DNA of 64,000 bases, from assembly GCA_004362315.1 (NCBI GenBank), contig SNWL01000010.1:124001-188000 (forward strand). The letters are read 5' to 3'. The position numbers and the translations under genes are program-made. Below the pieces are notes generated by a model, which saw nothing but the letters and a program-made list of their open reading frames with translations, searched no databases and was not told where the DNA came from. Position 1 is the first letter of the stretch. Each line of letters begins with the position of its first letter. Positions 34,427 through 61,153 of this stretch are shown here, piece by piece. This stretch comes from Mycobacterium sp. BK086. GTDB taxonomy: Bacteria > Actinomycetota > Actinomycetes > Mycobacteriales > Mycobacteriaceae.

Positions 34427-34449
34427 CCGACACCAGGAGAACGCCTCTC

Positions 34450-34722
34450 ATGACCACCACCGTGCTCGCCGCCACCGACCTGGTGTCCGGCTCCCGCACC
34501 CTCTACAGCCTCGGCGTCACCGTGCTGGTGGTGCTGATCCTCCTCGGCGCCGGCGCCCGGGCGGCCGCCGCGTTCTTCGGCGGGCGCATCGGCGAAACCG
34601 TCGGCTGGGCCGTCATCGGCGTGATCGTCGCCGTCATCGTCGGCTCCGGCTACGCCATCTACGTCTCGGCCAAACGCACCACCGACCAAACCGGCATCAC
34701 CACCGGCCAATTCGGCCAATGA
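34450..34722 (+). CDS. Small T4SS membrane protein (VirB2/VirB3-like position)
   Basis: A 90-residue protein from ATG 34450 with AGGAG upstream. Two membrane helices are visible (SLGVTVLVVLILLGAGARAA; TVGWAVIGVIVAVIVGSGYA). In Gram-positive T4SS operons a protein of this size before VirB4 often fills the VirB2 or VirB3 role, but its sequence does not settle which. Its stop overlaps the VirB4 start (ATGA). Confidence 0.7.
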   Translation: MTTTVLAATDLVSGSRTLYSLGVTVLVVLILLGAGARAAAAFFGGRIGETVGWAVIGVIVAVIVGSGYAIYVSAKRTTDQTGITTGQFGQ

Positions 34723-39508: not shown

Positions 39509-39993
39509 CAGACGCCCGACGTGCGAGTGCCTTCCTGTTGCCTCCTCCCGAGCTGCACGAACAGGCGCGGGATGCGAGCGGCGCTAAAGGGAGTGTTGAT
39601 CAAACCACTCAAGATAGCCGTCGGTGGACGCATGTTGGTCTCCTAGGCCCGAAGCCCGTCGAGGTCGCCTTCGTACTTCGCGAGCGCGAGAAGGCCAGCA
39701 ACAGACGCGTAATTGATGTCCGTTACAGCGGTTGTCGCGGAGCCGACTCACATACAGAGCAGCGCTTGACGCATCGGTGAAGTAGACCAGTTGACTTCCC
39801 GGGAAGAGTACGCGCAGTCACGTGGGTCGATCAGCAGTCTGACCAAGGCCGTCCTACGGCTACTGAACGAGCTCGGCCCAGACGGCCCCCAGCCATGTGA
39901 CCGCGGAACTTCCAGGCGCCACATCGAGCACCATGAACTGCCGCTCTACATCAGCCGGAACGCTGCGCGTCTATGAGGTGTCGCTGTCGTCGG
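39509..39993. other. Non-coding start of the second accessory island, 485 bases
   Basis: Composition shifts here to lower GC than the T4SS operon. No supported gene. On the minus strand the short reading GYLEWFDQHSL (about 39590-39630) vaguely resembles the end of an IS3/IS481-type transposase, but it is too short to call. Confidence 0.45.
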
Positions 39994-40710
39994 TTAGGGC
40001 TGCGCGAGAGATCGCATCCACTGATCGATGGTCATCCAGATGTCGTCAACCGGTTGCACCTGGGCGTCCGAGACGACCCAGCCGTCGCGTCGATCGACGC
40101 TGTCGTCGTCCAGTTCGACACACACCGACGATGCGCCGAAATCAAAGAATAGCGATACCAATTCGTCCAGGTTTGGTGCAGGTTTGGTGCCTTGCACTTC
40201 AGCTGAGTCGGTGGTGAGGTCCTCCCCCACGGCGAACAGTTCCGCGCTCGCGGGAAACCCGTTGTGGAATGCGGAGGCGAGCGTGAAGCCATCATGGAGC
40301 TGGGTGTAGAACACGCGCGTCGACGTGGGAAATTTGGTGAGGTCCAGCGACGGGTTCTCGAGTGCTGGGGACGGCGGAAAGCCGTACCAGCACACGATTT
40401 CACCGGAAGGAACCGCCGAGACGTAGGCCAACAACGGCTTGCCCCCAGACTCAGATCGACCCAGGAATATGCCGCGTCCACTTTCGCGCAGCCGCTCGTG
40501 AAGGTTGACCAACGTTCCGGGCAGCGTCGTTTGCCATTGATCAATCGCACGTGCGATGCCTGCCTGGAGTGGAAGCTGTGTTGCCTCCAGCCACCAATCG
40601 GGAACCGCGTCCCGCTCGTCGTCGGTCAGCTGGTCTGGGTCAATGACCGCTACTGATTCAAACAGTGCTGTACTCAACAAGTCTGAGAGTTCGCGCGGAA
40701 CGTCGGCCAA
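39994..40710 (-). CDS. SUKH/SMI1-like immunity-type protein
   Basis: A 238-residue soluble protein. TTG 40710 has GAGG 5 bases upstream. The strand pattern around IFLGRSESGGKPLLAYVSAV, EIVCWYGFPPSPALENPSLD and HNGFPASAELFAVGEDL is like SMI1/KNR4 (SUKH) domains, used as immunity or toxin-neutralising proteins in bacterial toxin systems. The N-terminal conserved Trp (VPDWWLEATQ) also fits. No adjacent toxin is seen, so it may be an orphan immunity gene. Family call is moderate. Confidence 0.5.
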   Translation of the reverse strand: MADVPRELSDLLSTALFESVAVIDPDQLTDDERDAVPDWWLEATQLPLQAGIARAIDQWQTTLPGTLVNLHERLRESGRGIFLGRSESGGKPLLAYVSAVPSGEIVCWYGFPPSPALENPSLDLTKFPTSTRVFYTQLHDGFTLASAFHNGFPASAELFAVGEDLTTDSAEVQGTKPAPNLDELVSLFFDFGASSVCVELDDDSVDRRDGWVVSDAQVQPVDDIWMTIDQWMRSLAQP

Positions 40711-40859
40711 GGTAACCTCGCTTACTGCTCAGTGGGCCAGATATCCAGACCGTACCCCAAGGGGCGCGAGATTGGCCACCACCCAGCACTCCTGGCGGCG
40801 GGCCACTACCAGCAACAGAATTACGTTATTCGGGTCGAGATCAACACTTTTCGGCGGCG

Positions 40860-41093
40860 GTGTCCGACCCAGAAGCGACCTATACGGATGGCACCGATGG
40901 GATACGCCGGAATCTCAACGAGACGTTCTACCAGCGCATCTTCCTCGACGAGGAAGGCCTACAGACCAGCGACTTGAACCCGCCATTTGTTGATTTGCAG
41001 GCTGCGCTCACGATGACAACGAAAGAGCGGCCGCGACCTCGCCAACGACTAGCACGAAACAAGGCCCCTCTCGGGAGCCTTGCATCGAGCTAG
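40860..41093 (+). pseudogene. C-terminal remnant of a large serine recombinase
   Basis: TDGIRRNLNETFYQRIFLDE, then EGLQTSDLNPPFVDLQAAL, resembles the last part of large serine recombinases, where a zinc-ribbon/coiled segment leads to RRxxNxxFFxxIxID...PF. The catalytic N-terminus and the zinc cysteines are missing, and no upstream frame carries them. So it is a broken recombinase, probably a scar of the element that brought the island. The 41094-41428 stretch behind it holds nothing recognisable. Confidence 0.5.
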
Positions 41094-41428
41094 CGACGAT
41101 CATTCGACCCCTGGATTTGGCTCTTGCTCTTGCCGACATCCTTTCGGGTGCGGGTTCGAGTAAGGTCACTCTGGTGGCGCTAAGGCGTGGTCCTGATGGA
41201 ACGTTATTCAAACCCGCACTGTGTGGCTGGGGCCAGAACGTCGACGACCTGTCGTGGCGGAAACGCGCGATACTCGACCGTCTACTCATGCCGAGAAGCA
41301 GTTGAAATAGCCATGATTCGCGACAAAACACCCAAATCGGGTCGACCTAGTTCGGATGCCGCAATTTTTCCATCGCCCCCGCTGACCCCTATCGGTGCGG
41401 AGGCGTTAGATTCGCCATCGCATCGGGA

Positions 41429-42091
41429 TCAGGGATTGAGGATGTAAAGGCCGGCAATCGTTTGATCATCACGAAAGCCGATGCGAGCGACCAACTCACC
41501 AGCATCGAAGCGCAGTCGCGTGACGGTCCTTGTGAGGTCCCCCTCGCGAGCGACGTCGGTGTCCCCGTGGCCCTCGTAGTTTCCGACCATTCCTGGGATT
41601 TGACGCCACACCGCGGCAAGTTCCTCCTCGCTCAGCCCGTCGTGCATCCTGGCATCGAAGCGAGCGCGAACCTCGGCCCACCGGGCATTGGTGAGATCAT
41701 CGATGACACTGCTAGCCAGATCGGCGGCCTCAGGAAGTGGCCCCTCTCCTGTTTCAGGATCAATTGGCTCGTCGAAATGGTCGATCCTCGCTTTCGGCAT
41801 CACCCGAGTGGTCGAGCGTCCACGCAAGACACCTTTGACGGCGCCGCTAATCGTCAGCTCCCCGCCATGGTTGGTGACGTCACCCATAGATAGTCCGCGG
41901 AGTTTGGCCCTGGCCCCCGGCTCGATGACGAGTCCGTCCACCGCGCCAATGATATTGGCGTAACCGCCGGACTCAACCGTCAGTGTGCCTACGACCATGC
42001 CAACCAAAACGAGCTTTCCCCCGCTCGTCACCCGGACATCGCCGTCGGTCTTACCGAACTTAACGCGAATACCTGAAATTGCCGCTGACAT
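41429..42091 (-). CDS. Bactofilin-like beta-helix fused to a DUF3887-like domain
   Basis: A 220-residue protein. Residues 1-90 form a short repeated beta pattern (GDVRVTSGGKLVLVGMVVGT, LTVESGGYANIIGAVDGLVI, KLRGLSMGDVTNHGGELTIS) like bactofilins and other polymer-forming beta-helices. The C-terminal part (VRARFDARMHDGLSEEELAA then EGDLTRTVTRLRFDAGELVA) matches the DUF3887/NTF2-like pattern. No signal peptide or membrane segment. A cytoskeletal-type polymer with an attached domain is plausible. Family calls are by eye. Confidence 0.65.
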   Translation of the reverse strand: MSAAISGIRVKFGKTDGDVRVTSGGKLVLVGMVVGTLTVESGGYANIIGAVDGLVIEPGARAKLRGLSMGDVTNHGGELTISGAVKGVLRGRSTTRVMPKARIDHFDEPIDPETGEGPLPEAADLASSVIDDLTNARWAEVRARFDARMHDGLSEEELAAVWRQIPGMVGNYEGHGDTDVAREGDLTRTVTRLRFDAGELVARIGFRDDQTIAGLYILNP

Positions 42092-42883
42092 GACCCCAAC
42101 AATACTGCCAACTAAGGCATACGCCGACCTGAAATGATCGACACGATATGGCCTTTCACGTGCAAACCAAGCTCGTCATCGACATGGCCGCTTAATGCGC
42201 GCGGCTGATTCGAGGATTGCGGAACCAGCACCCTCCTTTGACCGTTGGCGTCAACACCACCGTAAACGACACGCCGCCATCGCTTCTATGCCGCACAGCT
42301 CAATCAACGGGTGCAAGTCAGGCTGCACGCCACCGAAGTAGTCACTTTTGGGTACAGTAGACGCAATCGCGAGAGCCTGGGGTCCAGTGTGGAGCCTGCT
42401 AATGAACAGCGAGCGCTTGGCCCCTGTGGTCATAATTGCCTCCAATTTGATCGAGGTCAAACGCCTAAGGGCAGGCACGACTTTTTAACGCCCACACCAC
42501 AGCTAGGCGCTGACTGCTGGACTAAGAGTGGGAAGCGGGCACGCCATACGAGAATGAATAGACCTAGTCGGCGTGGAGCCGAAGCGTCACGACTGGCTCG
42601 AGCAACCGCCCTCAAGGCCTTGAAGCAAGGCGAAAGCGGTCGCGCCGCCAAAGGAGTTGGCCGACATCGAGGCGGCGATTCATCAGAATCCTGATCCACC
42701 TCGCAACCCCGCTGGTCCCTCCGCGACCTACCAAGTCCGTCATAGCTTTGCTTGACGACCTCGCACCGGACGCCTCGATCATGTATACCGCCATGGCGCA
42801 ACGGCCCACGATCCAACAGGCCGTTGCGCCAACGGGCCTTGTACAACAGAAAGGCTCCCGGGTCTGTCACACCTCTGCCTCGA
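42092..42883. other. Non-coding stretch, 792 bases
   Basis: Between the bactofilin-like gene and the zinc-ribbon gene. Several open frames cross it on both strands, but none has a ribosome site plus recognisable sequence. It could contain decayed genes. I see no RNA gene or repeat. Confidence 0.45.
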
Positions 42884-43330
42884 CTACTTCGGGAGATCGA
42901 GGCAGCCTGGTGGTCCAGTGCACTCCCATGGTCCACACGTGGTGACTCCGTCTTTGATTGTGCAAGTGCGCGAACAGCCACAGATGACGGTGAGACCGGT
43001 TCTTCCACCGAAGTCACCAAATCCGCCGCTCCTGAGAAGCATTACCGCACCGCCTGCGGCGACACCGAGATCGACTCTGACTTCGCCTGGGATACCCGTA
43101 CCGCCACAGCCACAGTCACTTCCCGCAGCGGGGGCGGAAAGGCGGAATTCCGTTGTCGGGCCTATCCATTCCTTGCAGTGGTGGCACGTCGTCGCAGCGG
43201 CATGGACCTTCTCCTTGCACAGCAGCGGACACACGCCGCCGTGGTCAGGAGTCGATACGGACGCGATGTCCGTCAGGCAGTGTTGCATCGCCTTGCGCCG
43301 TCGGCAACCTGCTACCGACAGTAGGGACAT
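42884..43330 (-). CDS. Cys-rich zinc-ribbon protein
   Basis: A 148-residue protein from ATG 43330; a start at 43288 is also possible. CPLLCKEKVHAAATTCHHCK then EWIG is a zinc ribbon of the type CPxCxExIxxxAxxCxHCGEW. The end is also Cys-rich (VICGCSRTCTIKDGVTTCGP then WECTGPPGC). It lies 47 bases after the 195-residue gene in the same direction and may end that operon. No strong ribosome site. Confidence 0.5.
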   Translation of the reverse strand: MSLLSVAGCRRRKAMQHCLTDIASVSTPDHGGVCPLLCKEKVHAAATTCHHCKEWIGPTTEFRLSAPAAGSDCGCGGTGIPGEVRVDLGVAAGGAVMLLRSGGFGDFGGRTGLTVICGCSRTCTIKDGVTTCGPWECTGPPGCLDLPK

Positions 43331-43377
43331 TCAGAACGTGTTGTTCCCATGGGTGAACCTTCTTCGCTGACGGGACC

Positions 43378-43965
43378 TTACTGTTGGCGTTTCTGGTGTC
43401 CGTATTGTCTGAGCACCTGGAGAACCTCGCGGGCATCGCGACTGCGGTTGGCGGCGAGCCCAGCAGGCGCCGGGGCGATCGGTATCAGCGTGTCCCGCTG
43501 AGGATTTGCGTCATCATGCATCCAGAGCCCCGTGAAGTAGAGCGCTGATATCTGCAGAATCCGCTGCTCGGGGGAACCGCCATCGACAGCGGCATGGCGG
43601 TGATCGTCAGAGAGGTCGTACGCGACTCCGGCCTCGAAAACGCCTTGAACGAAAGGCCCGTAGTTCATCGCGCGGATCGTTGCGGTGTCCTCGTTGACGT
43701 CGGCGTCCGCTAGTGCGACAGCCACCCCATCAAGAATCACGAGGGATCGCCAGCCGTTCGCCTCCGCGGCGGCGAATCCGTCACCGTTGAGCAGCGAATC
43801 AAGGCTCAGGATGTAGAGGCGGCGCGGGACAACCGACGTCTTCGAGGCTTGGTAAGTAATCCATCGCGGACTGATGTCGTGAAGGCGGTCCGGGAGCAGA
43901 TCTTCTGCTACCCGCAGTGTCTCATCGAGTAGTCCATCTGGAGGCGACGGTGGCGCGATCGGCAC
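43378..43965 (-). CDS. Hypothetical protein of the PLD/protease operon
   Basis: A 195-residue soluble protein. GTG 43965 has AAGGAG 5 bases upstream and lies 12 bases after the protease stop, so the two are co-transcribed. It contains a mixed alpha/beta stretch (PRRLYILSLDSLLNGDGFAA, WRSLVILDGVAVALADADVN, TIRAMNYGPFVQGVFEAGVA). I do not recognise the family. Its fixed place beside the papain-like protease suggests it is an inhibitor, immunity protein or partner; inferred. Confidence 0.65.
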   Translation of the reverse strand: MPIAPPSPPDGLLDETLRVAEDLLPDRLHDISPRWITYQASKTSVVPRRLYILSLDSLLNGDGFAAAEANGWRSLVILDGVAVALADADVNEDTATIRAMNYGPFVQGVFEAGVAYDLSDDHRHAAVDGGSPEQRILQISALYFTGLWMHDDANPQRDTLIPIAPAPAGLAANRSRDAREVLQVLRQYGHQKRQQ

Positions 43966-43977
43966 GGTGGCTCCTTG

Positions 43978-44634
43978 CTAGGTGGTGAAGTGCACTTGGG
44001 TGACAATGCCGTCGGATTTGTAGTTGGTGTTCAGTTCGTTGAGTGGCAGGTCAGACGGTCCGTATGCCGGATCCGCCACAGCCACCATGTTGTCCCTGAC
44101 GCGGTGCCCGATGATGGCGAGGAAGTGGTTTTGCAGGCGCGGCGGCCGGCTGCTCTTCCAGTGGATTTCCACCACCAGAGGCCGACCCACCGGCCGGTCG
44201 CGGATGACTGCGAGGTCGGCGGCGCTGACAGGCCCGTCTTTCTTGCCTTGCCAGCGGCCCGTCGCCTCTAACGCCGGTTGGATGTCTTCCGCCACGTTGC
44301 ATGGGGACGGCGCCGTAGGGCCAGGGCAGCAGTCATCGCGCCCGAGAAAGGTGTTAACAAAGCTGCACTGGCTGCGGGACGTGCCGTCGTAGTAATTCGC
44401 CACTGACACGGCGACCGCGGCCCAGCACCAGTTAGACTGCTCCTGAGGTTGCATCACAAACGGCAATCGCCAGAATCTGCAGTTGTCCAAAGCCGCAGTT
44501 GCCCGGGCTTGTTCGTGTAACAGGCGGTTTACCTGTTGACACCAGCCTCGCACACCGGCGGCACAGCCGTCGCGCGCCTCGGCCAGACGATCATTGGCTT
44601 CGGTGAGGGCCGCTTGCTCCGCTTCGCATGCCAT
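43978..44634 (-). CDS. Papain-like cysteine protease
   Basis: A 218-residue protein. QEQSNWCWAAVAVSVANYYD holds the catalytic Cys70; His170 in NHFLAIIGHR and Asp188 in VADPAYG complete a papain-like triad. This is the WCWAA type of C39/C70-like proteases found in bacterial toxins and defence-linked proteins. The first 60 residues form a helical segment with several Cys and may be a propeptide or partner-binding region. ATG 44634 is chosen: GGAGG lies 9 bases upstream. It follows the membrane-protein gene by 28 bases. Active-site residues look intact. Confidence 0.85.
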   Translation of the reverse strand: MACEAEQAALTEANDRLAEARDGCAAGVRGWCQQVNRLLHEQARATAALDNCRFWRLPFVMQPQEQSNWCWAAVAVSVANYYDGTSRSQCSFVNTFLGRDDCCPGPTAPSPCNVAEDIQPALEATGRWQGKKDGPVSAADLAVIRDRPVGRPLVVEIHWKSSRPPRLQNHFLAIIGHRVRDNMVAVADPAYGPSDLPLNELNTNYKSDGIVTQVHFTT

Positions 44635-44662
44635 CGCAATATGCCTCCATTCAAACTCAGAG

Positions 44663-45166
44663 CTACTCCCACCCGAACACAGCGATCGCGCATACCCCCA
44701 GTGCCAGAATGGCCACAATCTGCGCAATCCCGGAAAGCGCCAGGAATCGGTACTTGAAATTGGTGCCGGTGCGCAGCGTCGTGACGGACAGGATCGTGAA
44801 ATTCGCTGTCTGCCAGCGTGCGTCGATCGGATTGTCTTTCCAGTGCTCGGCGGACAACAGCGACCGCATCGTTGCTTCGTCCACGGCGTCATACGTGCGG
44901 TTGAGTCCGGCGATAACCGCGAAGACAGCAGCGGCGAGGAACGCCAGCAGGGCGGCGGCCATGGAAGTCAGTGCGGCACCTTTGAGCGTAAAGTCCTTGC
45001 CGAGTATCAGGGCGAAGATACCGGTAGCGAGCGTGGCGAGTCCGGTTGCAGACGTAATCGCCGTCGCCGCCCGCGAGTTGACCTGATCTCGTCGCGAATA
45101 CTCCCGCGCGAGTTGATCCTTCAGGTACGCGGCGTATTCGACACCCTGCTCGGGTCCACCGCTCAT
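44663..45166 (-). CDS. Small membrane protein of the PLD/protease operon
   Basis: A 167-residue protein. A charged N-terminal helix (EYAAYLKDQLAREYSRRDQV) is followed by two membrane helices (ATGLATLATGIFALILG; SMAAALLAFLAAAVFAVIAG), a soluble loop and a last helix (GIAQIVAILALGVCAIAVFG). The layout recalls SLATT-type two-helix effectors of bacterial conflict systems, but the match is only structural by eye. The start overlaps the stop of the 42-residue peptide gene. Confidence 0.7.
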   Translation of the reverse strand: MSGGPEQGVEYAAYLKDQLAREYSRRDQVNSRAATAITSATGLATLATGIFALILGKDFTLKGAALTSMAAALLAFLAAAVFAVIAGLNRTYDAVDEATMRSLLSAEHWKDNPIDARWQTANFTILSVTTLRTGTNFKYRFLALSGIAQIVAILALGVCAIAVFGWE

Positions 45167-45291
45167 TCGCCGCGGCGGTCCTGGAATCCGGGCGCAACCT
45201 CGGGCAGGTGTTCCTTGCCGATATCGATCGGAATGGGCGGGTCGCGACCCTCGGTTTCCTTGGCGTCGTCGTCGGGAGTCCGGGTGATCAT
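45163..45291 (-). CDS. 42-residue peptide gene before the membrane protein
   Basis: ATG 45291 with GGAG 6 bases upstream reads MITRTPDDDAKETEGRDPPI, then PIDIGKEHLPEVAPGFQDRR. It is acidic and Pro-rich without membrane segments. Its TGA overlaps the ATG of the membrane protein, so translation is coupled. It might be a leader or small binding partner. Confidence 0.6.
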   Translation of the reverse strand: MITRTPDDDAKETEGRDPPIPIDIGKEHLPEVAPGFQDRRGE

Positions 45292-45375
45292 TTTGTACTC
45301 CAATCTAATTCGTGTCATCACTACCTAGGACGATGCCTCCTGGGCCCCGGGACGGACCGCTGCGAGCGATTGTGA

Positions 45376-47181
45376 TCACGCCGGCGCTTTCTCCTTGGCA
45401 GCGGCCGTCACCCAGCTCTTAGCTGGATCCGCGAAGAACATCTCACGCCGCCGGCACTTGAAGCTGTCGGGCTTGAAGAAAACGTCGCTCCACGTCGGTG
45501 TCTCGTCCAGGAACTCGCTGCGCCGTACATCGCCGCCGCCGGCGGCGATCTTGTTGGCGGCGTTGCGGGCGAAGAAGTGCCGGAAGATGCGGTCGAACTC
45601 GGTCAGGTAGATGTCGGCCACCCGGGTGTCGCCACGGATCAGGAGCATGTTCTCGTCGTTGCGTAACAGCGAGTTTGGTGAGAAGTTCGCCGAGCCGGTG
45701 CAGACCAGCGGGTCGTCGGACAGCGGGTCGATGAGCAGGAACTTGGTGTGGATGAAGAACACGAACCCCGCGTGCCGGAAGTGATCCTCCTTCAAGAACC
45801 ACTTGTCGAGTTCAAACTCCTTGATGCCCACACGCTTACCCGTCGGCTCACCCTTCTTGTCGAAGACATACGTCTCCCCCAGGATGTCGCCGAAGGCGAT
45901 CTCAACATCGCGGTTCTTGACCAGCTTCTGTCGCAACGTGACCGAGGGCGGTTTCTCCATCAGGACAAAGCGCAGCGTCTCGCTATCGGCAGCCAAGGCA
46001 TCGGCCAGGTGGGTATCCAGGCTGAACGGAATGGTGATCGCCGCTTGGTTCACGGCATCGCCGACGCGGTCGCCATACCACTGCAGTTGCACGGAGCGGG
46101 TGCGCGGCGAGAAGAACGGGACGACCGAATCAGCCGGAATCACCGCCGACGGATCAGGTGTCAGCGCCATGGCACCTTCTCGCGCGGCATCCAGCAGCGG
46201 ATCGCCGGACAGCAGCTTCCAGTAGGCGAGGTAGGTGGCAGCCACCTCGGCGTCCACCACCACATGGCCCACATTCGTTTGCCCAAGGAATCCGGATGGG
46301 GTGAAGTTCGTCGACCCAGTCCACACCTGCGTTGGCTTCTTGTCCGTGTTGAGCCGGACGATGAACTTGTTGTGCGGAATCCCCGGCGAATCAACGTGTC
46401 TCGGGAAGAGCACTTTGTGTCCGCCAACCTTGGCGGGCAGTCGGGCCGCCATGATGGCCGCTTCGTTGGCCCCGTGCTCTTCGCCATCGGACTTGCTGGT
46501 GTCGTGATAGACGATCTGGACATCGACGCCGCGGTCCAGAGCAGCTTTGAGCGCATCGAGGATTGGCGCGTAGGTGAATTCGTAGGCCGCTACCCGCAGC
46601 CCCTCCCCCTTGCTAGCAGCGCCGATGTAGCGCAAGCAGGCTTCCAACAGCCCGCGGGAAAGCCACTGGGTTTCCGGACTGGCAGGATCGGGATTGTCCG
46701 GCGGGTTCGGACCGACGTTGTCGAACTCCTCAGCAAAGGCCTGGCTGGCAATCGCGCCGCGGTTGAACCAGATGCCGTGGCCGTGCGCCGACTCTTTCTC
46801 GCTGTGGACGTCGAGTACCAAACCCTTGCCTTTGACCAGGGCGCCGGGCTTGCCGTACATCGGCACAATGGTGAAGGTGTAGTCGGTGTCCGGCAGCACG
46901 GTGTAGTCCGACCACAGGAAACTCTGGATCGGATGGTCCTCAGTGCTAAACCACGGCCGATGCCCCGGATGCTTCGGATCGACCTTCGGGTCCGGCACTA
47001 CCGAGCCGAACACTTTCTGCGACCGGAGCCAACTGTGATGACCTATCGCCGGCTTGCGCTGAATACCGAACCCCAGCAGACCCTTGCGCTGCGCCTCGTC
47101 GCAGTCCAGCGCCATCAGCACCACGTGAGTACCAATAACCGCCTTGACCCGAAACCCATTCGCCTCAACCAACGTCCGCAT
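45376..47181 (-). CDS. Phospholipase D-like (PLD superfamily) protein
   Basis: A 601-residue protein. The N-terminal 170 residues include an Ig-like or beta part (SDYTVLPDTDYTFTIVPM). Two PLD repeats follow. The first has HNKFIVRL from His270: the Asp of HxKxxxxD is replaced by Leu, although Asp and TGSTNF follow. The second has HTKFLLID from His478, fully canonical, with TGSANFS after it. PLD enzymes cut phosphodiesters in lipids or nucleic acids, using one His from each repeat. No signal peptide, so it should act inside the cell. First gene of the minus-strand operon, 84 bases before the 42-residue peptide gene. Confidence 0.88.
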   Translation of the reverse strand: MRTLVEANGFRVKAVIGTHVVLMALDCDEAQRKGLLGFGIQRKPAIGHHSWLRSQKVFGSVVPDPKVDPKHPGHRPWFSTEDHPIQSFLWSDYTVLPDTDYTFTIVPMYGKPGALVKGKGLVLDVHSEKESAHGHGIWFNRGAIASQAFAEEFDNVGPNPPDNPDPASPETQWLSRGLLEACLRYIGAASKGEGLRVAAYEFTYAPILDALKAALDRGVDVQIVYHDTSKSDGEEHGANEAAIMAARLPAKVGGHKVLFPRHVDSPGIPHNKFIVRLNTDKKPTQVWTGSTNFTPSGFLGQTNVGHVVVDAEVAATYLAYWKLLSGDPLLDAAREGAMALTPDPSAVIPADSVVPFFSPRTRSVQLQWYGDRVGDAVNQAAITIPFSLDTHLADALAADSETLRFVLMEKPPSVTLRQKLVKNRDVEIAFGDILGETYVFDKKGEPTGKRVGIKEFELDKWFLKEDHFRHAGFVFFIHTKFLLIDPLSDDPLVCTGSANFSPNSLLRNDENMLLIRGDTRVADIYLTEFDRIFRHFFARNAANKIAAGGGDVRRSEFLDETPTWSDVFFKPDSFKCRRREMFFADPAKSWVTAAAKEKAPA

Positions 47182-47354
47182 GATGCCTCCCCGGCTCGCG
47201 GCGTGCCAGATGGCCCTAAACCCCCGGCGAAGCTAGTGACCACCCGGCCGTGAGATCTGCGTACCACGCGCCGATCAGCCGGTGAAGGGTCTTCGCAGAG
47301 AATTCATCCGCCACCCCCGAGGTCGAGTGCCCCTGCGCAATCGTTCGAGTAGCG

Positions 47355-48023
47355 GTGCGAGGGGTGGCAAAAATTAGAGTGGTCGACTACTCGTTTAAAA
47401 GCGTGATGCTTACCGTACTGTGCCGCGCGGGGGGAGCCGGACTGGCGATACGACGAGGTGCGCTTATAGCGACGGAAAGCTCGACGCAGCTACGGCTGCT
47501 TGCCAGCATCGATCCGCGGCTCTGGGACGTTCTCTTTCCGCCGCAACCGCCCTGGACGGGCAGGGTCGCACCGAAGGACCCCATTTCACAACCCTGGCGT
47601 GTGGGATCCCTCACCGAACCGTGGGGCACTGAAAGCAACGACTTCCAGTTGCAGGTACAGATCGCGGTTCGCGATCTCACCCGACGAATCGTCGATGCCG
47701 CGGCCACCGCCAGCGCACAGGGCGGTGACGGCGCGGCGCTCATCAGGCGCACCGTCGACGACTGGATTCGCATCGATGACGGTGACGGCATCGGATGGGT
47801 GCCACTCAAGCTCTTCTTCCCGCCACTTTGGTGGATCGAGCTCCCGCGGCCATCACGACCGGACGAGCTTGTCGAGCTGGTCCCTGCATTCGCAGCAGCG
47901 GCCTGGTCATTCTTGGTGATCGCCGAAACGATCCGCGACCCATCGCTCCACCACGCGATCCACGGCGCCATCGACAGCATCCTCGGCAGAGCCGAACGCT
48001 CGTTCGCTGAAATCGGACATTAG
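47355..48023 (+). CDS. Hypothetical protein
   Basis: A 222-residue protein. GTGs at 47355, 47364 and 47379 are possible starts. It contains a Trp/Pro-rich middle (PPQPPWTGRVAPKDPISQPW; GIGWVPLKLFFPPLWWIELP) and a helical end (VELVPAFAAAAWSFLVIAET). No catalytic motif or membrane segment that I trust, although the Ala/Trp stretch at the end is hydrophobic. It is divergent from the PLD gene, so it may share its regulatory region. Confidence 0.55.
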   Translation: MRGVAKIRVVDYSFKSVMLTVLCRAGGAGLAIRRGALIATESSTQLRLLASIDPRLWDVLFPPQPPWTGRVAPKDPISQPWRVGSLTEPWGTESNDFQLQVQIAVRDLTRRIVDAAATASAQGGDGAALIRRTVDDWIRIDDGDGIGWVPLKLFFPPLWWIELPRPSRPDELVELVPAFAAAAWSFLVIAETIRDPSLHHAIHGAIDSILGRAERSFAEIGH

Positions 48024-48083
48024 AGCTTGTCGGCGGGCAGGATGCCTCGCCTCACCGACGAAAGAGAAACCGCAGCCAGCTAA

Positions 48084-48428
48084 TCATGCTTCTGGCTGAC
48101 GGATGTGGATGGCGTGGGCGCCGAAGAAGCCCGCCGTGGCCACAATCAGCCCGGCAAGGATGACGAACATGTTGCCACTCAATGTGATCAACGCGCCCTC
48201 GACCATAGTGGCGATCGACGCCAATAGCACCTTTTTGTGACCGAAGCGAGAAGCCTCGGCACCGGTACGCAGGGAAGCCCACGTTCCAGCCGGGTAAGCG
48301 AGGAACACCAGGCTCACAATCGCCCGTGGCAATTTGAACGGGGCACTCGCCAGCCGGAATCCAAGGAAATTGTAGAGCGCAACGAATCCGCCCATCCAAC
48401 TATGTCGGTCGCTGTGACTGTCGGACAC
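48084..48428 (-). pseudogene. Fragment of an MFS transporter
   Basis: 114 residues matching the middle of a major facilitator (YnfM-like): VALYNFLGFRLASAPFKLPR, then VFLAYPAGTWASLRTGAEAS and HKKVLLASIATMVEG. The first half with the other six helices and the end are missing. The fragment begins at a plausible ATG but is not a complete transporter, so it is a remnant at the border of the ESX locus. Confidence 0.7.
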
Positions 48429-48531
48429 CCTGGGCGGTCTGCGTGAGTGAGTCGCTACCGCGGCAGCCCGAGCCCGCGCGCGACGTAAACGTATATCGGT
48501 CCCAACCGGCCGATGAAGGCATTAGCAGCGG

Positions 48532-49161
48532 TCACGGGGCGCTGACAACCACCGGAAACCGAAGATCATCGCGTGCCAGGTTGCCCGGAAAACACGGCGA
48601 TATCGCAGTCAAGATCGGCGGATAGCTTGGCGGCTTGGACATTTCGATCTGTAGCCGATAGCCATCGGGGCCGTACCCGAACTGGTTCGGCTTGTTGAAG
48701 CCGTCGCGTTCGAACACGTACCACCCCCAGCTGCGCCAGGCGTCGCCGACCTTGGTGATCAGCTCTTTCGGATCCATGTCACCGGGCACCTTGATATCCC
48801 CCATCGTCTGCACATGCACCGGCGCGTTTTTGGGATCCTTGGGCTCGTCGTCACACCACGCGGCCTGTCCCGGATTGACGTAACCATGGCTATCCATCAC
48901 TGCCCCTGGCGGCAAGACCGCAAGTGTTCGCCTGAGGTAGCCGAGAACCGTGTCCTGGGCCTCCTGCTCGCTTCGCGGCACAACCTCTTTCAGTGACCAC
49001 CCCTGTGGGGGTGGCGGCGCTGATGTCATTGGCGGACCTCCTATTTCAGTAGCGCCCGTTGGTACAGGGGGGCCAAGCGAGCTGCCGCAGCCAGCGAGAA
49101 CGGCACCCGCAAGGCACAGTGCGCTGACCACTCGCCCCACGCGAAGCGATCGCGAAATCAT
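48532..49161 (-). CDS. Lipoprotein at the end of the ESX locus
   Basis: A 209-residue lipoprotein. ATG 49161 starts directly before a signal peptide ending in LAGC (Cys25); the open frame upstream to 49194 is not needed. The mature part is Pro-rich, then soluble. No family recognised. It follows the broken ESX-associated gene by 16 bases and is on the same strand as the ESX genes. Confidence 0.75.
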   Translation of the reverse strand: MISRSLRVGRVVSALCLAGAVLAGCGSSLGPPVPTGATEIGGPPMTSAPPPPQGWSLKEVVPRSEQEAQDTVLGYLRRTLAVLPPGAVMDSHGYVNPGQAAWCDDEPKDPKNAPVHVQTMGDIKVPGDMDPKELITKVGDAWRSWGWYVFERDGFNKPNQFGYGPDGYRLQIEMSKPPSYPPILTAISPCFPGNLARDDLRFPVVVSAP

Positions 49162-49177
49162 CGGCCGCACGCCTTTC

Positions 49178-49464
49178 CTATCCGGTCGGCACAATCGCCT
49201 CGGCCACGATCTTGTCCAGCCGCGGCTGCAGCTGCATCACCTTGAGGTCGGCCTCCATCGGATTGCGGACGGTGGGGCCGGGCACCACGGTGCCGGCCCC
49301 CTCATCGATCGCCATGCCCAGCGCGGCGGCGCGGGCCGCGTTCGCCACCGCGAGCGCTTCGTTGCCGTGCGCGCCCAGGTCTGCGCCCGGCTGGTCGCCG
49401 CGTAAAAGATCTCACGCACGTCACCGGGATTCCACCGCTCGATGTCGGCGACCGACACCGCCAC
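49178..49464 (-). pseudogene. Broken ESX-associated protein gene
   Basis: From GTG 49464 the frame reads AVSVADIERWNPGDVREIFY then AATSRAQ, the start of a mycobacterial family of about 100-450 residues that lies next to Esx genes. After this the frame is lost. From about 49405 another frame reads DLGAHGNEALAVANAARAAA, then VVPGPTVRNPMEADLKVMQL and stops at 49178, which is the same family's downstream part. The middle WXG-type segment is missing, so an internal deletion with a frameshift has occurred. Confidence 0.7.
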
Positions 49465-49470
49465 GACGAT

Positions 49471-49785
49471 CTAGCTCTCCCCGCCCAAGTCCACCCGCGA
49501 CAGCTCCTGCGCTCCACGTCCCTCAGCGAGATCGTAAATCACCCGCGCCCCAGCAAAATTCGACGCATGCGTACCGAGTTGCTCCACCAGCGCGGTGGTC
49601 GTCGCCTGCCACTGCGCCATCTGGGCGGTGAGCGCGGCCGCCGACGCCCCGGTCCAGCCGGGGGCGGCGCCCTCGATCAAGGCATCGGCGGCCGCATGCC
49701 GCTCTGCGACGTCGTCGGTGTGCCAGGCCACCGTCTGCCCCGAGGTCGTCAGGTCGGCCGGCGTGACCTTCAGTGAATCAGACAT
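49471..49785 (-). CDS. WXG100-family Esx-like protein
   Basis: A 104-residue WXG100 protein. PGWTGASAAAL (about 43-53) is the WXG turn between two helices. YDLAE (84-88) fits the YxxxD/E secretion signal of type VII substrates. The gene follows eccA by 20 bases in the same direction and precedes the broken gene. Its partner may have been the product of the now broken gene. Confidence 0.88.
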   Translation of the reverse strand: MSDSLKVTPADLTTSGQTVAWHTDDVAERHAAADALIEGAAPGWTGASAAALTAQMAQWQATTTALVEQLGTHASNFAGARVIYDLAEGRGAQELSRVDLGGES

Positions 49786-49805
49786 AAATTGTCCCCCTTC
49801 CTGTT

Positions 49806-51671
49806 TCAGATACCCGGTCCGTTGACGGGTCCGCGCCCGCGTTCGGCGTCGGCGACCGCGGAGGTCAGTCCCTCGCTGAAATCCTCGGCGGTGAGCTCTT
49901 TGAACCGGCGCAGCAGCGCCTCATCGGCCGGGTCGAAATCGTCGGCGGCCAACAAGGCATCCAGATCCTCGTCGTCGAGCCGGTTGTTGCGGTGATCGCG
50001 CGCCTTCTCCACCAGGTTGCGCACGAATCCGCCGTTGCCCAGCCAGTCGATGCCGCGGATCACATCGCCGTCGGGGGTCAACGACTCCTGGCTGTAGTAG
50101 CGGGTGAACACCGGGCGCAGCACCGCCTCGGCATCGGCAGCGATGAGGTCCTCGTTCTGGGCCCCCATCAGGCGGGTGAGCTGCCACAGCTCGTCGGGGG
50201 TGTAGGAGCAGAACGTGATCGTTGTCGAAAACCGGCGCCGCAGACCCTGATTCGCCGTCAGCATCCGCTCCACCGCCTTGGGATACCCGGCGCCGAACAC
50301 CACCAGATCGTCGCGGTGGTTCTCCATGTAGGGCAACAACGTTTCGATGATCGCGGTACCGTACGGGTCGCCGTGCGAATACCCCTGGTCGTAGAGGTTG
50401 TGCATCTCGTCGAAGAACACCGCCCCGCCCAGCGCGGAATCCAGCAGCGCCCGGGTGTTGTTCTCCGACTCCCCCAGATGGTTGCCCACCAGCCGCGACT
50501 TGTTGGTTTCAGCCACCGTCGGCCGGCGCAGCACCCCCAACCCGCACAGCTGCTTGGTCAACGCCCGCGCCACCGTGGTCTTGCCGCAGCCCGGCGGGCC
50601 GACCAGCAGGGTGTGCCGCGAGGTCACCGGCACCGGCAGCCCCATCTTGGCGCGGGCGGCGTTGACCTTGGTCGTCGAGCGGATCAACTTCACCTGCTGT
50701 TTGGCCTCGGCCATGCCCAGCATCGAATCCAGCTCGGCCTCGCCGTCGAGCAGATACCGGTTGGCCTCCTCGGCGTGCTTGGCCGCCTCGGCCTGCCCCG
50801 GCGGGGGTGCGCTGGCCGAATCCCACGGCTCCGTGCGGGCGTCGATCGTCTCGGGGTTGGTCACCAGCAGCCGCCGGGTCGGGTCGTCCATCGCCTCCCG
50901 GGCTGGGGTGAACTTCGGGTCCCGCGAGTACACCCGCCGCAGCAGCTGGACGGCGTCGTCCTCCTTGCCCAGATGCCGCAGGCACATCGCCTGGGTGTAG
51001 AGCGCCACCGTCGTCGCGGTCGGCACCAGATCGGCGTCGACGACTTCCCGCGCACGCCGGAAGGCGTCCTCGAACACCCCCAGCGATGCCAGCGCCGTCG
51101 TGGCCATCGCCGCCGCTGCCGCCCCGTATACCGGTTTGCGCCAGCGCTTCTCGGGGCCGAACAGCCGCAGCACATCGGCCCAGCGCTGGGCGCGGAACTG
51201 CAGCAGCCCGGCGGCGTAGGTGTGCAAGTCGGCGTCGAAGGGATCGCTGGGGGCCAGCTCGGCCAGCAGCGCGTCGGCGTCGGCGTAGCGGCCGTCGCGG
51301 CCCAGCACCACTGCATGGGCGATGCCCAACGAGTTCTGCGAGGTGATCTCCAGGCGCACGAACAACCCGTCGGACACCGCCGGGGTGAAATCGCCGGTCC
51401 GCACCGCCAGCCGGCGGGTCTCCCAGCCCAACGTCTCGCGCGCCGCCCACGCCCCGGCCAGCACCGCCACCGAATCGTCGCCGGCGACGATGCGCGCCAG
51501 CCACGCATCGCACATCCCCGGATCCAGCTCGACAGCCTGGCCGAACAACTTGGCCGCCGCCGCCGGATTCTGGCTGGGCATCAACCCGTTCACGGCGATC
51601 CCCGAGGCCAGCAGGCCGCGGCTGAACGCGGCCCGCGCCGCTTCTGCCGTGCTGGTTCCCACGCTGGTCAT
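49806..51671 (-). CDS. eccA: ESX ATPase EccA
   Basis: A 621-residue cytosolic protein. The first 280 residues are TPR-like helices (LFGQAVELDPGMCDAWLARI; DPKFTPAREAMDD). The AAA+ core has Walker A VGPPGCGKTTVARAL, Walker B AVFFDEMHNLY and a sensor region (RRRFSTTITFCSYTPDEL). EccA works with the substrate chaperone EspG and recycles it. It lies between eccE and the Esx-like gene, 31 bases from eccE. Confidence 0.95.
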   Translation of the reverse strand: MTSVGTSTAEAARAAFSRGLLASGIAVNGLMPSQNPAAAAKLFGQAVELDPGMCDAWLARIVAGDDSVAVLAGAWAARETLGWETRRLAVRTGDFTPAVSDGLFVRLEITSQNSLGIAHAVVLGRDGRYADADALLAELAPSDPFDADLHTYAAGLLQFRAQRWADVLRLFGPEKRWRKPVYGAAAAAMATTALASLGVFEDAFRRAREVVDADLVPTATTVALYTQAMCLRHLGKEDDAVQLLRRVYSRDPKFTPAREAMDDPTRRLLVTNPETIDARTEPWDSASAPPPGQAEAAKHAEEANRYLLDGEAELDSMLGMAEAKQQVKLIRSTTKVNAARAKMGLPVPVTSRHTLLVGPPGCGKTTVARALTKQLCGLGVLRRPTVAETNKSRLVGNHLGESENNTRALLDSALGGAVFFDEMHNLYDQGYSHGDPYGTAIIETLLPYMENHRDDLVVFGAGYPKAVERMLTANQGLRRRFSTTITFCSYTPDELWQLTRLMGAQNEDLIAADAEAVLRPVFTRYYSQESLTPDGDVIRGIDWLGNGGFVRNLVEKARDHRNNRLDDEDLDALLAADDFDPADEALLRRFKELTAEDFSEGLTSAVADAERGRGPVNGPGI

Positions 51672-51702
51672 GCGCGCTGCTCTCCTTGTGCGTCGACCAT
51701 GG

Positions 51703-53283
51703 TCAGGCCGCCCGCCGCGGCGAACTCACATTGCGCTCCGGCTCCACATCGATGATCACCCGGTGGGTGAACTCGGCGGTGCGGATCACCGCGCTGCTCG
51801 CCGACTCCTGCTCCAGATGCACATCGGCGACACTGGCGCTGCCCGGCGCCACCAGCCGCACCGAGATCGCCGCGGCCGGCCCCGGCGGGGCGTCGAGCAG
51901 GTCGTAGAACACCGCCACCCCGCGGCCGTCGTCGGGCAGCTCGGCGGGCACCCCATCGAGCACCCGCAAGCCCGTCGCGGTCGCGTCGCGCCACCGCTGC
52001 GGGCGCCGGGAGACCACCAGCACCTGGTAGCCGATCGCCGCGGTGCGCAGCGCCACCTGGATCAGCAGCGCCAGCTCCCCGGCCACCGTCACCGCCGCCG
52101 ACGACCTCGGGCCGGGCGCGGCCAGGTTCATCAGCAGGGGATGCCCACTGGGCAAGGCGCCCAGCAGGATTCCGGTCGCCCCCAGCGGGGCCCGCAGATC
52201 CTCGCCGTCGGTCAGCACCCGGTGCGGGGCGTCCAGCGCCGCCGCCGGTGCGGCGATGCTGATCGCCGCCACCCCGAGGTCCTGGCGCCCCGACAGCGGG
52301 TTGAGCCCGGTGACCGGGGGCTCACCGAATTCGGTGCTCGCCCCGTAACGCACCAACACACCCACCGACACCGCCCCGTCGACCGCGGGTCGCAGCTGCA
52401 CCGCGGTGGCGGTGGAATCGGTGTCGGGCACCCAGATCCGGTCCAGGGTGTCGCTGCTGATGTCGCGCGGGGACACCCAATAGGTGGCCAGCGACCCGCC
52501 GTCGTGGCGCACCGCCGACCACCGCGGCCGCGGATTCGGCCCCAGCCCGGCGCTCAGCGCCGCGTCCACCTCGGCCAGTGCGGCCGCGTCGAGCACCCGG
52601 GCCGGCAGGTGCCGGGCGGTCAGTTCGGCGGCCAGCCGCGCCGCGCACGTCGCCAGGGTGGCGGCCACCGAGTCTCGGCACACCACCGCGGCGACACTGT
52701 CGAGCCGGTTCATCCGCAGCACACACCAGGTGCGGCGCTGACCAATCGCCGGATGATCCCCCACCATCCGCGAATAGGTGGCGCCGTAGTGGTGATGGGC
52801 GCGCCCGGCGCGCCGGCGGCCCACCGACAGCACATCGATCCCGGCCAGCGTCACATCGAATTGGCGCACTGCGTCGGCGATCACGTCGATCGGCAGGCTG
52901 GCCGCCGACTGCACCCGATGCTGGTCGAACACCGACGGGACGTGCGCCGGGCCGTCGACGGCCAGCACCGCGATCAGCTCATCACCGACCGCGCGCAACC
53001 CGACGTGGGTGTCGGTGTAGCGCAGCCGGTGATCCTCGGCGCCGGCCGGCCCCGGCGCCACGTCCCGGCGGCGCAACGCCCGCACCACCAACCCGCCCAG
53101 CGGAACGCCGCGCCACGCCACCAGCAGCACCAGCACCGCAATCACGCTGAGCCCCAAAGCGATCCACCGCCCGGCGGTCGCCGGGATCTCGGTGCCCGCC
53201 CACAGCAGCGTCACCACCACGACGAACGCGGTCAGCACCCGCGCCCACCCGGTGGCCACCCCGACGGGAAACGTCGCCCGCAT
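51703..53283 (-). CDS. eccE: ESX core component EccE
   Basis: A 526-residue protein with two N-terminal membrane helices (GWARVLTAFVVVVTLLWAGT and WIALGLSVIAVLVLLVAWRG) and a soluble remainder with VTLAGIDVLSVGRRRAGRAH. This is the EccE layout; the protein is at the periphery of the EccBCDE membrane complex. It follows mycP by three bases and precedes eccA. Confidence 0.92.
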   Translation of the reverse strand: MRATFPVGVATGWARVLTAFVVVVTLLWAGTEIPATAGRWIALGLSVIAVLVLLVAWRGVPLGGLVVRALRRRDVAPGPAGAEDHRLRYTDTHVGLRAVGDELIAVLAVDGPAHVPSVFDQHRVQSAASLPIDVIADAVRQFDVTLAGIDVLSVGRRRAGRAHHHYGATYSRMVGDHPAIGQRRTWCVLRMNRLDSVAAVVCRDSVAATLATCAARLAAELTARHLPARVLDAAALAEVDAALSAGLGPNPRPRWSAVRHDGGSLATYWVSPRDISSDTLDRIWVPDTDSTATAVQLRPAVDGAVSVGVLVRYGASTEFGEPPVTGLNPLSGRQDLGVAAISIAAPAAALDAPHRVLTDGEDLRAPLGATGILLGALPSGHPLLMNLAAPGPRSSAAVTVAGELALLIQVALRTAAIGYQVLVVSRRPQRWRDATATGLRVLDGVPAELPDDGRGVAVFYDLLDAPPGPAAAISVRLVAPGSASVADVHLEQESASSAVIRTAEFTHRVIIDVEPERNVSSPRRAA

Positions 53284-53286
53284 CGC

Positions 53287-54996
53287 CTATGAACTCCTTC
53301 CGCGCACCAGCGCCGCCAACCCGACGGTCAGCCCGCACAACAACGCGACCGCGCCGACCCCACCCAGCGCCACCCACACCGGGGTCATGTCCCGGCCCAC
53401 CGGCGGCGGAGGCAACACCAACGGCGTCGAGAGGTGCTGCGGGGGAAGCGGTTCCCCAGCGGGCACGTCATAGGTCAGGGCGGCGACCGGGTCGACCACG
53501 CCGTGGCCGACCTGGTTGTCCACTCCACGCGCCGGTGGGTGGGCGGTGGCGATCAACCGAGTGATGACCTGATGGGCGGTCAGCTGCGGATACTTCGCCC
53601 GCACCAGCGCCGCCACCCCGGACACGATCGCCGCCGAGAAGGACGTGCCCGCCGGGGCCACCATCTGATTGTCGTGGCCTTCGGAGGCGTTGATCAGGCC
53701 GTCGTCGCGCGGCGACAGGCTCACCACGTCGGTGCCGGGCGCCGCGATCGACACCCACGGCCCGGCCAGCGACAGATCGGTCAACGGCGCTCCCACCGAA
53801 TCGACCGCCCCCACCGTCAGCACGTAGTCGGAGAACCACGCCGGGGTCACCACCGTGTTCACCCCCGCCCAGTCCCGGGGATCGTTGGGGGTCAACGGGT
53901 TATAGATCGGGTTCTGCTTGCAGTCGCTGGCCCCGGCGTCGCCGCTGTTGCCGGCGGCGGCGACGATCACCGCGTCCTTGTCGACGGCGGCGTAGTGGAT
54001 CGCCGCGCCCAGCACCCGCTGGTCGACCATGTTCAGTGCGCTCATGCAGGACACCTCGGAGATGTTGATGATCTTGGCGCCCATGTTCACCGCGTGCACG
54101 ATCGCCCGGGCCATCGTCGCGATGTCGCCGGCCTTGCGGCGGGTCACCGGATCCTGGTCGCCGAACGCGTCTTTCGGCGAGAACGCCCGCGAGGTCTGCC
54201 GGATCGAAATCAGCGTGACGTCCGGGGCCACCCCGGCGAACCCGTCGGCCGGCGGGATCACCGGCGCCGGAACCGGCGGCGGGCCGGGCGGCGGCGCGGG
54301 GATGTCGCCCGGCGCGGCCGGCAGCACCTCGTGATGGCCGACCGCGGTCACCGTCGGCCCGTGCGGGCCGCCGCCCGACCAGGCGGCCGGAGCGTCGTCC
54401 GGCGGCGGTGGGGGCGGGGGCGGCGGGGCCGGCACCTGCACGATCACCGTCGTCGGGTTCGGCGGCGGCGGCGGGGGCGGCGGGGCCTCGCTGGTCGGCA
54501 CGGTATCGGGATGGCGGGTCGAACGCGGCGGCGGCAGTGCGGTTTTCCCGTCGGCGGGTTCAGCGGCGATCAGCGAGGCCACCCAGGTGCCGTGTGCATC
54601 GCAGTCGTCGAGACCGTCCCCGCCGTCCATCACATAGTCGCCGCCGCCGATCAGGTTCGGCAGCCGCGGATGCGGGCTGACGCCGGTGTCGATCACCGCG
54701 ACGCTGACACCGGCGCCGCGGCCGAACTTCCACGCCTCGGCCAGGTTCAGCATGTCGGCGTACTTGGGCTGCGCCCGGTAGTCGGTGCCCGGCAGCGTCG
54801 CCACCCGCGTGCAGTAGGCGCCCTGGCGCATCGGTTGCGCCGGGCCGGGCGGGCCGTCCGGGGGCACCGCGGTCGGGTCGATGCTGGGCGGGTCGATCGC
54901 CGCGGCGCGCGGCGCCCCGCACAGTCCCGACACTGCGACCAGTGCGGCCGCCGCTGACACCGCCGCCGCCCGTAATCCGTGGTGAGCGGCCATCAT
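53287..54996 (-). CDS. mycP: Mycosin protease MycP
   Basis: A 569-residue subtilisin-like protease. Signal peptide (residues 1-33), then the catalytic triad Asp103 (VAVIDTGVS), His135 (DAHGTWVAS) and Ser452 (GTSFSAA), and a C-terminal membrane helix (WVALGGVGAVALLCGLTVGL). All residues are intact. Between His135 and the rest of the catalytic domain lies a long Pro-rich insertion with two runs of eight or more prolines, the largest part of loop 5 of mycosins. MycP is needed for ESX stability and cleaves some substrates. ATG 54996 overlaps the eccD stop (ATGA); the alternate ATG 54993 is adjacent. Confidence 0.95.
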   Translation of the reverse strand: MMAAHHGLRAAAVSAAAALVAVSGLCGAPRAAAIDPPSIDPTAVPPDGPPGPAQPMRQGAYCTRVATLPGTDYRAQPKYADMLNLAEAWKFGRGAGVSVAVIDTGVSPHPRLPNLIGGGDYVMDGGDGLDDCDAHGTWVASLIAAEPADGKTALPPPRSTRHPDTVPTSEAPPPPPPPPNPTTVIVQVPAPPPPPPPPPDDAPAAWSGGGPHGPTVTAVGHHEVLPAAPGDIPAPPPGPPPVPAPVIPPADGFAGVAPDVTLISIRQTSRAFSPKDAFGDQDPVTRRKAGDIATMARAIVHAVNMGAKIINISEVSCMSALNMVDQRVLGAAIHYAAVDKDAVIVAAAGNSGDAGASDCKQNPIYNPLTPNDPRDWAGVNTVVTPAWFSDYVLTVGAVDSVGAPLTDLSLAGPWVSIAAPGTDVVSLSPRDDGLINASEGHDNQMVAPAGTSFSAAIVSGVAALVRAKYPQLTAHQVITRLIATAHPPARGVDNQVGHGVVDPVAALTYDVPAGEPLPPQHLSTPLVLPPPPVGRDMTPVWVALGGVGAVALLCGLTVGLAALVRGRSS

Positions 54997-58051: not shown

Positions 58052-58151
58052 GGAACACCTCACTTTCTCACCACGGGCGTCAGAGGAATTCTCATCACCC
58101 TGAAATTGGTAGCTGACACAAATTTCGAGCAGGCATCTCACATTTGCTGAA

Positions 58152-59450: not shown

Positions 59451-59480
59451 CTGTTCTTCTCCTTGGGTAGTTGGGGTGGC

Positions 59481-61140: not shown

Positions 61141-61153
61141 GGCGGTGACCCGT

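What the first reader, a model, noticed from the sequence alone, without database searches (positions are those of the whole stretch)
42884..47181. Compact operon: PLD-like enzyme, 42-residue peptide, membrane protein, papain-like protease, unknown protein, zinc ribbon
Six minus-strand genes are packed with coupled starts (ATG overlaps at 45163, 12-base gap at 43965). They combine a phosphodiesterase with one canonical and one altered HKD motif (Leu replaces Asp), a membrane protein of about three helices and an intact papain-like triad (Cys70/His170/Asp188). Enzyme + protease + membrane effector is the style of bacterial defence or toxin systems: the protease could activate the membrane protein or the PLD. 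I know no described system with exactly this set.
Basis: partly seen in the sequence, partly recalled or inferred. Interest (0 to 1): 0.75.

Follow-up and report, generated by a model that had tools for sequence, protein, structure and literature searches.

The report
Protease plus membrane-protein cargo on plasmid
A mycobacterial plasmid-type DNA region carries, as extra cargo, a small peptide, a three-helix membrane protein and a papain-like protease that together look like a protease-triggered membrane-damage switch, although the link between these parts is inferred and untested.

Summary
The minus-strand genes are there, but they are at least three separate cassettes. (1) The PLD enzyme belongs to a widespread family; in 79 genomic loci of relatives none of the other genes was found in the fetched DNA, and its 'altered' HKD motif is a family trait. 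(2) The papain-like protease (Pfam C70, triad in 10 of 10) and the unknown gene after it are a conserved pair, fused into one protein in three genomes of two genera, so the unknown gene is a protease partner. (3) The short peptide and the three-helix membrane protein are also a conserved pair. Relatives of this membrane protein lie beside a CHAT caspase-like protease in 5 of 10 other genomes (0.05 expected), once with a C14 caspase between. Among the loci read, only the window has a papain pair in that position. The 'zinc ribbon' frame looks broken. [quoted passage not shown] three related plasmids lack it. As mechanism I propose a protease-gated membrane effector. There is no direct evidence of function.

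The parts
45376..47181 (-). PLD-superfamily enzyme, 601 aa: beta-rich N-terminal domain, first HKD motif HNKFIVRL (no Asp), second HKD motif HTKFLLID complete
   Evidence: PF13091 E 3e-23; 79 genomic loci; motif table; model pLDDT 90.9; nearest solved folds PLD 7e0m and PLD3/PLD4, TM about 0.4 by query length, about 15% identity
45163..45291 (-). 42-aa acidic, proline-containing peptide whose stop overlaps the start of the membrane gene
   Evidence: a comparable peptide in 9 of 11 membrane-gene loci against 3 of 244 control genes, criteria set after seeing the peptides
44663..45166 (-). 167-aa membrane protein with three hydrophobic segments
   Evidence: relatives
43978..44634 (-). 218-aa papain-like cysteine protease (Pfam Peptidase_C70), triad C70/H170/D188, four further invariant Cys (90, 102, 103, 112)
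   Evidence: PF12385 22.8 bits, cut-off 19, on the longer 304-aa frame; alignment of 10
43378..43965 (-). 195-aa protease partner of unknown fold
   Evidence: follows or is fused to the protease elsewhere; no PDB sequence match and only two stray Pfam matches (E 0.13, 0.33) among 11 members
42884..43349 (-). remnant with zinc-ribbon-type Cys pairs in two frames; probably a broken gene
39509..49177 (.). cargo stretch (GC 0.613 against 0.705 and 0.718 in the flanks) between the T4SS and ESX genes

Best explanation
The operon is plasmid cargo whose core is a protease-gated membrane effector. Shown by comparison: (i) short peptide and three-helix membrane protein are a conserved, closely coupled pair; (ii) papain-like protease and the next gene are a conserved, sometimes fused pair; (iii) relatives of the membrane protein sit beside CHAT proteases, once also a C14 caspase, far more often than chance. 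Inferred: the peptide holds the three-helix protein inactive; on a trigger (phage infection or an incoming element), sensed by the protease-partner unit, the protease cuts the peptide or the membrane protein; the freed protein permeabilises the inner membrane and the cell stops growing or dies, abortive-infection style. Here a papain-type protease takes the place that a CHAT protease has elsewhere. The PLD (nuclease- or phosphodiesterase-like) is an independent gene of the same cargo. This is the mechanism I think most likely; the rival of plain cargo accretion, which denies any joint mechanism, I hold slightly likelier for this one locus.
For: Operon order with a 4-base overlap and gaps of 28 and 12 bases. 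Membrane family: 11 full-length loci; CHAT beside the pair in 5 of the 10 other than the window (L149, L150, L162, L176, L164; in L164 a C14 caspase lies between). Those ten genomes hold 0-4 CHAT genes each, so 0.05 adjacent cases were expected in 16 kb around the gene, Poisson tail 2e-9; 3 of the 6 loci found after the idea was formed show it. C14 genes number 0-2 per genome. Peptide in 9 of 11 loci against 3 of 244 control genes. Protease triad in 10 of 10. Partner fused to protease in L102, L103, L130. Cargo position on a mobile backbone. Precedent: bacterial gasdermins are cut by adjacent caspase-like proteases, and 'caspase-like' there includes C14 and CHAT (PMC9612521, passages).
Against: Only one locus joins papain and this membrane protein; 0 of the 10 other papain loci read has it among called genes. 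The papain domain elsewhere is fused to lectin-like modules (DUF346 in L120, AbfB-like below cut-off in L100), which with four invariant extra Cys hints at work outside the cytoplasm. The membrane pair also occurs with no protease nearby (L174, L175) or with other genes (L147, L148, L163). The reverse test is negative: 0 of 12 Streptomyces plasmid CHAT loci (two of them near copies) have the membrane protein among called genes. The first two CHAT cases suggested the hypothesis that was then tested on all ten. The window peptide lacks the Trp seen in 8 of 10 peptides. No structure of the membrane protein, the partner or a complex.
Confidence: 0.35

Rival explanations
1. Cargo accretion: three unrelated cassettes (PLD; peptide + membrane protein; protease + partner) collected side by side on a plasmid, each working alone, with no protease-membrane link here.
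For: Each cassette occurs without the others elsewhere; PLD family with no fixed neighbour; a probably broken gene at the end of the operon; low-GC cargo.
Against: Same strand, gaps of 28 and 12 bases; the membrane family's tie to CHAT proteases makes a protease neighbour by mere chance less likely.
Confidence: 0.4
2. The papain-like protease is a secreted or delivered antibacterial or environmental effector and the 195-aa partner is its immunity or chaperone protein.
For: DUF346 and AbfB-like modules fused to the protease in L120 and L100, repeats in L011; the Burkholderia plasmid copy lies near a DUF2169 and a polymorphic toxin gene; four invariant extra Cys; the window lies beside an ESX secretion locus.
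Against: Partner fused in one chain with the protease in three genomes of two genera, odd for an immunity protein; partner occurs without a protease match in nine genomes of one genus; no signal peptide was evident on reading the window protease (no predictor was run).
Confidence: 0.17
3. The PLD is the central enzyme of a defence system of DISARM type, and the other genes are its accessories.
For: Weak DrmC matches.
Against: DrmC score 38.9 against cut-off 133; no other DISARM gene among the eight proteins scanned; PLD not linked to the rest in 79 loci.
Confidence: 0.04

Closest known systems
Bacterial gasdermin with adjacent caspase-like/CHAT protease
   Same: Protease gene beside a membrane-damaging effector gene; protease cleavage as switch (PMC9612521, passages)
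   Different: Effector here is a protein with three hydrophobic segments and a separate short peptide, with no gasdermin match; protease is papain-type
EACC1-caspase two-gene system (Kaur et al. 2020, PMC7159879, passages)
   Same: Small membrane protein gene paired with a cysteine protease gene
   Different: EACC1 has one TM helix and its partner is a caspase; here three hydrophobic segments, a separate peptide, and papain
SLATT and PycTM membrane effectors
   Same: Small membrane proteins; a partial relative lies beside a SMODS-like and a Cap15 gene (L177)
   Different: No model reached at its cut-off or a convincing E-value
Peptidase C70 (AvrRpt2-like papain family)
   Same: Curated Pfam cut-off met; triad conserved
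   Different: Extra invariant Cys, a conserved 195-aa partner, plasmid operon; described members act in plant-pathogen interaction (PMC10318531, passages), of which nothing is seen here
PLD3/PLD4 and bacterial PLD (7e0m)
   Same: Fold of the HKD lobes
   Different: About 15% identity, extra N-terminal beta-rich domain, first HKD motif without Asp

Membership tests
Peptidase C70 (PF12385) | score over the curated cut-off | tested here: met
   22.8 bits against 19; four relatives 20.5-37.2
Peptidase C70 (PF12385) | Cys-His-Asp triad | tested here: met
   invariant in 10 of 10
PLD superfamily (PF13091) | score over cut-off and two HKD lobes | tested here: met
   82.4 bits against 27; fold; first motif lacks Asp
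DISARM DrmC (NF038319) | equivalog cut-off | tested here: not met
   38.9 against 133 bits
SLATT | NCBIfam SLATT model cut-off | tested here: not met
   11.7 against 55 bits; 1 of 5 members, E 0.18
PycTM / Pycsar effector | model match and neighbouring cyclase | tested here: not met
   1 of 8 members at E 0.042; no cyclase family among the 10 and 8 window proteins scanned
Bacterial gasdermin | gasdermin fold of the effector | tested here: inconclusive
   three hydrophobic segments; no useful PDB sequence match; structure not predicted
Bacterial gasdermin | cleavage by the adjacent protease | not testable with these tools
   needs biochemistry
EACC1-caspase system | single TM helix plus caspase | tested here: not met
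   three hydrophobic segments; protease is C70
ESX-bearing mycobacterial conjugative plasmid backbone | T4SS genes next to an EccA-EccE-MycP-EccD locus | tested here: met
   68-74% identity in aligned pieces and same order as pMK12478, a M. rufum plasmid and pMAH135

The most novel reading that the evidence does not exclude
A previously undescribed cell-death module: a short peptide plus a three-helix membrane effector, gated by interchangeable cysteine proteases of unrelated folds (CHAT, C14 caspase, and here papain with a dedicated partner), spread through actinobacterial genomes and a mycobacterial conjugative-plasmid backbone.
Probability: 0.33. Interest if true: 0.8.

Novelty: new variant of a known kind. 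Interest (0 to 1): 0.5.

Why it matters
If the membrane protein is a protease-gated effector, it adds a second effector type, beside gasdermins, that answers to caspase-like proteases in bacteria, and shows that the protease can be exchanged for a papain. It also gives a first context to an unnamed protein family (the 195-aa partner) and describes what one ESX conjugative-plasmid backbone carries as cargo.

Tried and rejected
PLD as partner of the protease or membrane protein: rejected (79 loci, none). Trypsin-like neighbours of PLD by a motif: 2 of 84 loci, but the motif missed the annotated serine proteases of L009 and L014, so this test is weak. Protease-partner as toxin-immunity pair: weakened by the fusions. 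Viral contigs: the A5 scan and the A6 scan gave 11 and 152 pattern hits but no relative. Plasmid tblastn with the window membrane protein, the partner, the L150 and L147 membrane proteins and the zinc-ribbon ORF gave no match; that the partner query missed L011-L013 shows the limit of this search. Fold of the partner without relatives: mean pLDDT 41, not interpreted. Reverse test from CHAT to membrane protein: 0 of 12 Streptomyces plasmid loci chosen from 200 and 107 records with a CHAT match. Family search around one CHAT-linked genome: 5 genomes, no new case.

Rows dropped before counts: of the membrane-protein hits I left out L151 (broken copy), L177 and G331 (partial) and L178-L180 (a different membrane protein beside an antiporter gene, judged false positives). 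In one search, 33 of the 79 PLD loci plus the window were aligned: of 38 listed first, L050 failed, L068 and L070 were left out by me, and L051 and L057 had stops or a broken frame. Of the 6 plasmid records with the protease I read 4.
Full report
WHERE IT IS. The window is G000:C8:124001-188000 of an unnamed 6.93-Mb genome. Its own genes include a relaxase-like protein (15542-20605, my reading), T4SS genes (33506-37565: TcpC just below its cut-off, AAA_10 above it) and an ESX (type VII) locus (49178-63881). The T4SS-ESX stretch is 68-74% identical in aligned pieces, in the same order, to pMK12478, a Mycolicibacterium rufum plasmid and pMAH135. In all three the last long T4SS gene and eccA are less than 1 kb apart; in the window about 10 kb lie between them, with GC 0.613 against 0.705 and 0.718 in the flanks. 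These three were read out of 29 plasmid records with a match. The operon is therefore cargo on an ESX conjugative-plasmid backbone. That such plasmids combine type IV and type VII systems is known (PMC5452490, passages). Whether contig C8 is itself a plasmid was not shown.

CASSETTE 1, PLD. The 601-aa enzyme (PF13091) has relatives in 94 plasmid records and in 285 confirmed stretches of the genome collection, of which the best 79 loci were fetched, by their titles from Proteobacteria, Bacteroidota, Cyanobacteria, actinomycetes and others. In its own genus 3 of 148 genomes have it at E <= 1e-10, own genome included, one of them only distantly. The first HKD motif lacks Asp in 33 of 33 relatives read and the second is complete in 32 of 33. 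The model (pLDDT 90.9) is nearest to PLD 7e0m and PLD3/PLD4 at about 15% identity, which does not settle lipid or nucleic acid as substrate. tblastn with the other operon proteins on the 94 loci then held found matches only in L011-L013, none in PLD loci, and profiles of the membrane protein, partner and protease found none among called genes of the PLD loci. Neighbour clustering over the 82 loci where the PLD gene was called gave no fixed partner: response-regulator-like proteins in 16 loci, glyoxalase-like in 9, Dyp-peroxidase-like in 8, DUF2278-like in 6, S1/P1-nuclease-like in 5, HAD-like in 4 (the names come from records or from my reading).

CASSETTE 2, PROTEASE AND PARTNER. The window protease passes the Pfam C70 cut-off. 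All four plasmid protease loci read (of 6 records) have a partner-like gene after it: L011 (tblastn 2e-5), L012 and L013 (pairwise BLAST 1e-5 and a weak 3e-4) and L145 (profile 6e-12). Searching with the partner found it in 5 of 298 genomes of the order and 12 of 346 of the phylum, own genome included in both. In the six hits outside the own genome and outside one genus, the protease is present: adjacent in L100, L101, L120 and fused in L102, L103 (one genus) and L130 (another). No PDB match to the partner and no consistent Pfam match. The protease occurs in 1 of 148 genomes of its genus, the own one. Ten protease sequences share C70, H170, D188 and also C90, C102, C103, C112.

CASSETTE 3, PEPTIDE AND MEMBRANE PROTEIN. 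The membrane protein gave hits in 7 of 249, 6 of 346 and 10 of 325 genomes in three searches (overlapping sets, own genome, partial and false hits included). Eleven full-length loci remain (window, L147, L148, L149, L150, L162, L163, L164, L174, L175, L176). Eight were checked for hydropathy and each has three hydrophobic segments. A short acidic, proline-containing peptide ends within -40 to +30 bases of the membrane start in 9 of 11, against 3 of 244 other genes in 26 loci, or 1 of 115 genes with free upstream DNA; the criteria were set after seeing the peptides. L163 has a longer one that just misses the proline cut and L164 has an N-terminal extension instead. Eight of ten peptides carry a Trp; the window and L163 peptides lack it and share an IDIGxE string.

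LINK TO PROTEASES. CHAT proteins lie next to the pair in L149, L150, L162 and L176; in L164 a C14 caspase lies beside it and a CHAT gene after that. The ten genomes hold 0-4 CHAT genes and 0-2 C14 genes each. With 16 kb around the gene, 0.05 adjacent CHAT cases were expected and 5 seen; Poisson tail 2e-9. Two of the four loci read first (L147-L150) suggested the link; 3 of the 6 found afterwards show it. It is one-sided: 0 of 12 Streptomyces plasmid CHAT loci, two of them near copies, have the membrane protein among called genes, and L174 and L175 show the pair among housekeeping-type genes. In the window the protease position is taken by the papain pair, 28 bases downstream. This is a single case, and none of the ten other papain loci read has the membrane protein.

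MECHANISM. Shown: the pairs, the coupling, the conserved catalytic residues, the statistical tie of the membrane protein to CHAT proteases. Inferred: the peptide is a cap or cleavage target, the three-helix protein is the effector, the protease-partner unit is the trigger. I rate this 0.35 against 0.40 for simple cargo accretion.

PUBLISHED WORK. Searches for combinations of SLATT, CHAT, caspase, papain-like, gasdermin, AvrRpt2, short ORF and membrane effector listed no paper that by title or abstract start describes the peptide + three-helix protein + protease set. Several of these lists were capped (10 of 1,026, 10 of 144, 8 of 338, 10 of 15), and the library lacks most subscription papers. 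Nearest are the EACC1-caspase system and the SLATT proposals in Kaur et al. 2020 (PMC7159879, passages), the EACC2/TRADD-N work (PMC8195603, passages) and bacterial gasdermins (PMC9612521, passages).

Noticed in passing
G000:C8:287684-289408 (L005, L107, L142): A second, diverged PLD relative (about 28% identical) on the same contig, in a locus that clusters with DUF2278-like genes of other PLD loci.
   Followed up: partly
L121-L129: The protease partner family occurs without a protease match in nine genomes of one unnamed genus, with a shared neighbour gene in at least six: probably a vertically kept gene of unknown function.
   Followed up: partly
L177:5842-7699: A partial relative of the membrane protein beside a SMODS-like nucleotidyltransferase (below cut-off) and a Cap15-type receptor (CBASS-like set).
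   Followed up: no
L176:6702-10280: CHAT protein of 1192 aa with a zinc-ribbon-like N-terminus (CpXC, below cut-off), directly after the peptide-membrane pair.
   Followed up: no
L151:5500-6100: A broken copy of the membrane gene with a recognisable upstream peptide in another genome of the same genus.
   Followed up: no
L163: Membrane pair in a locus with an eCIS core protein, a VWA protein and a metallo-beta-lactamase-fold protein.
   Followed up: no
window 41429-42091: DUF3887 protein with an added N-terminal region, in the same cargo stretch.
   Followed up: no
L009 (Bradyrhizobium plasmid): PLD relative among two serine proteases, a DNA/RNA non-specific endonuclease and an S1/P1 nuclease, reminiscent of the NucA-peptidase systems of Kaur et al. 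2020.
   Followed up: no
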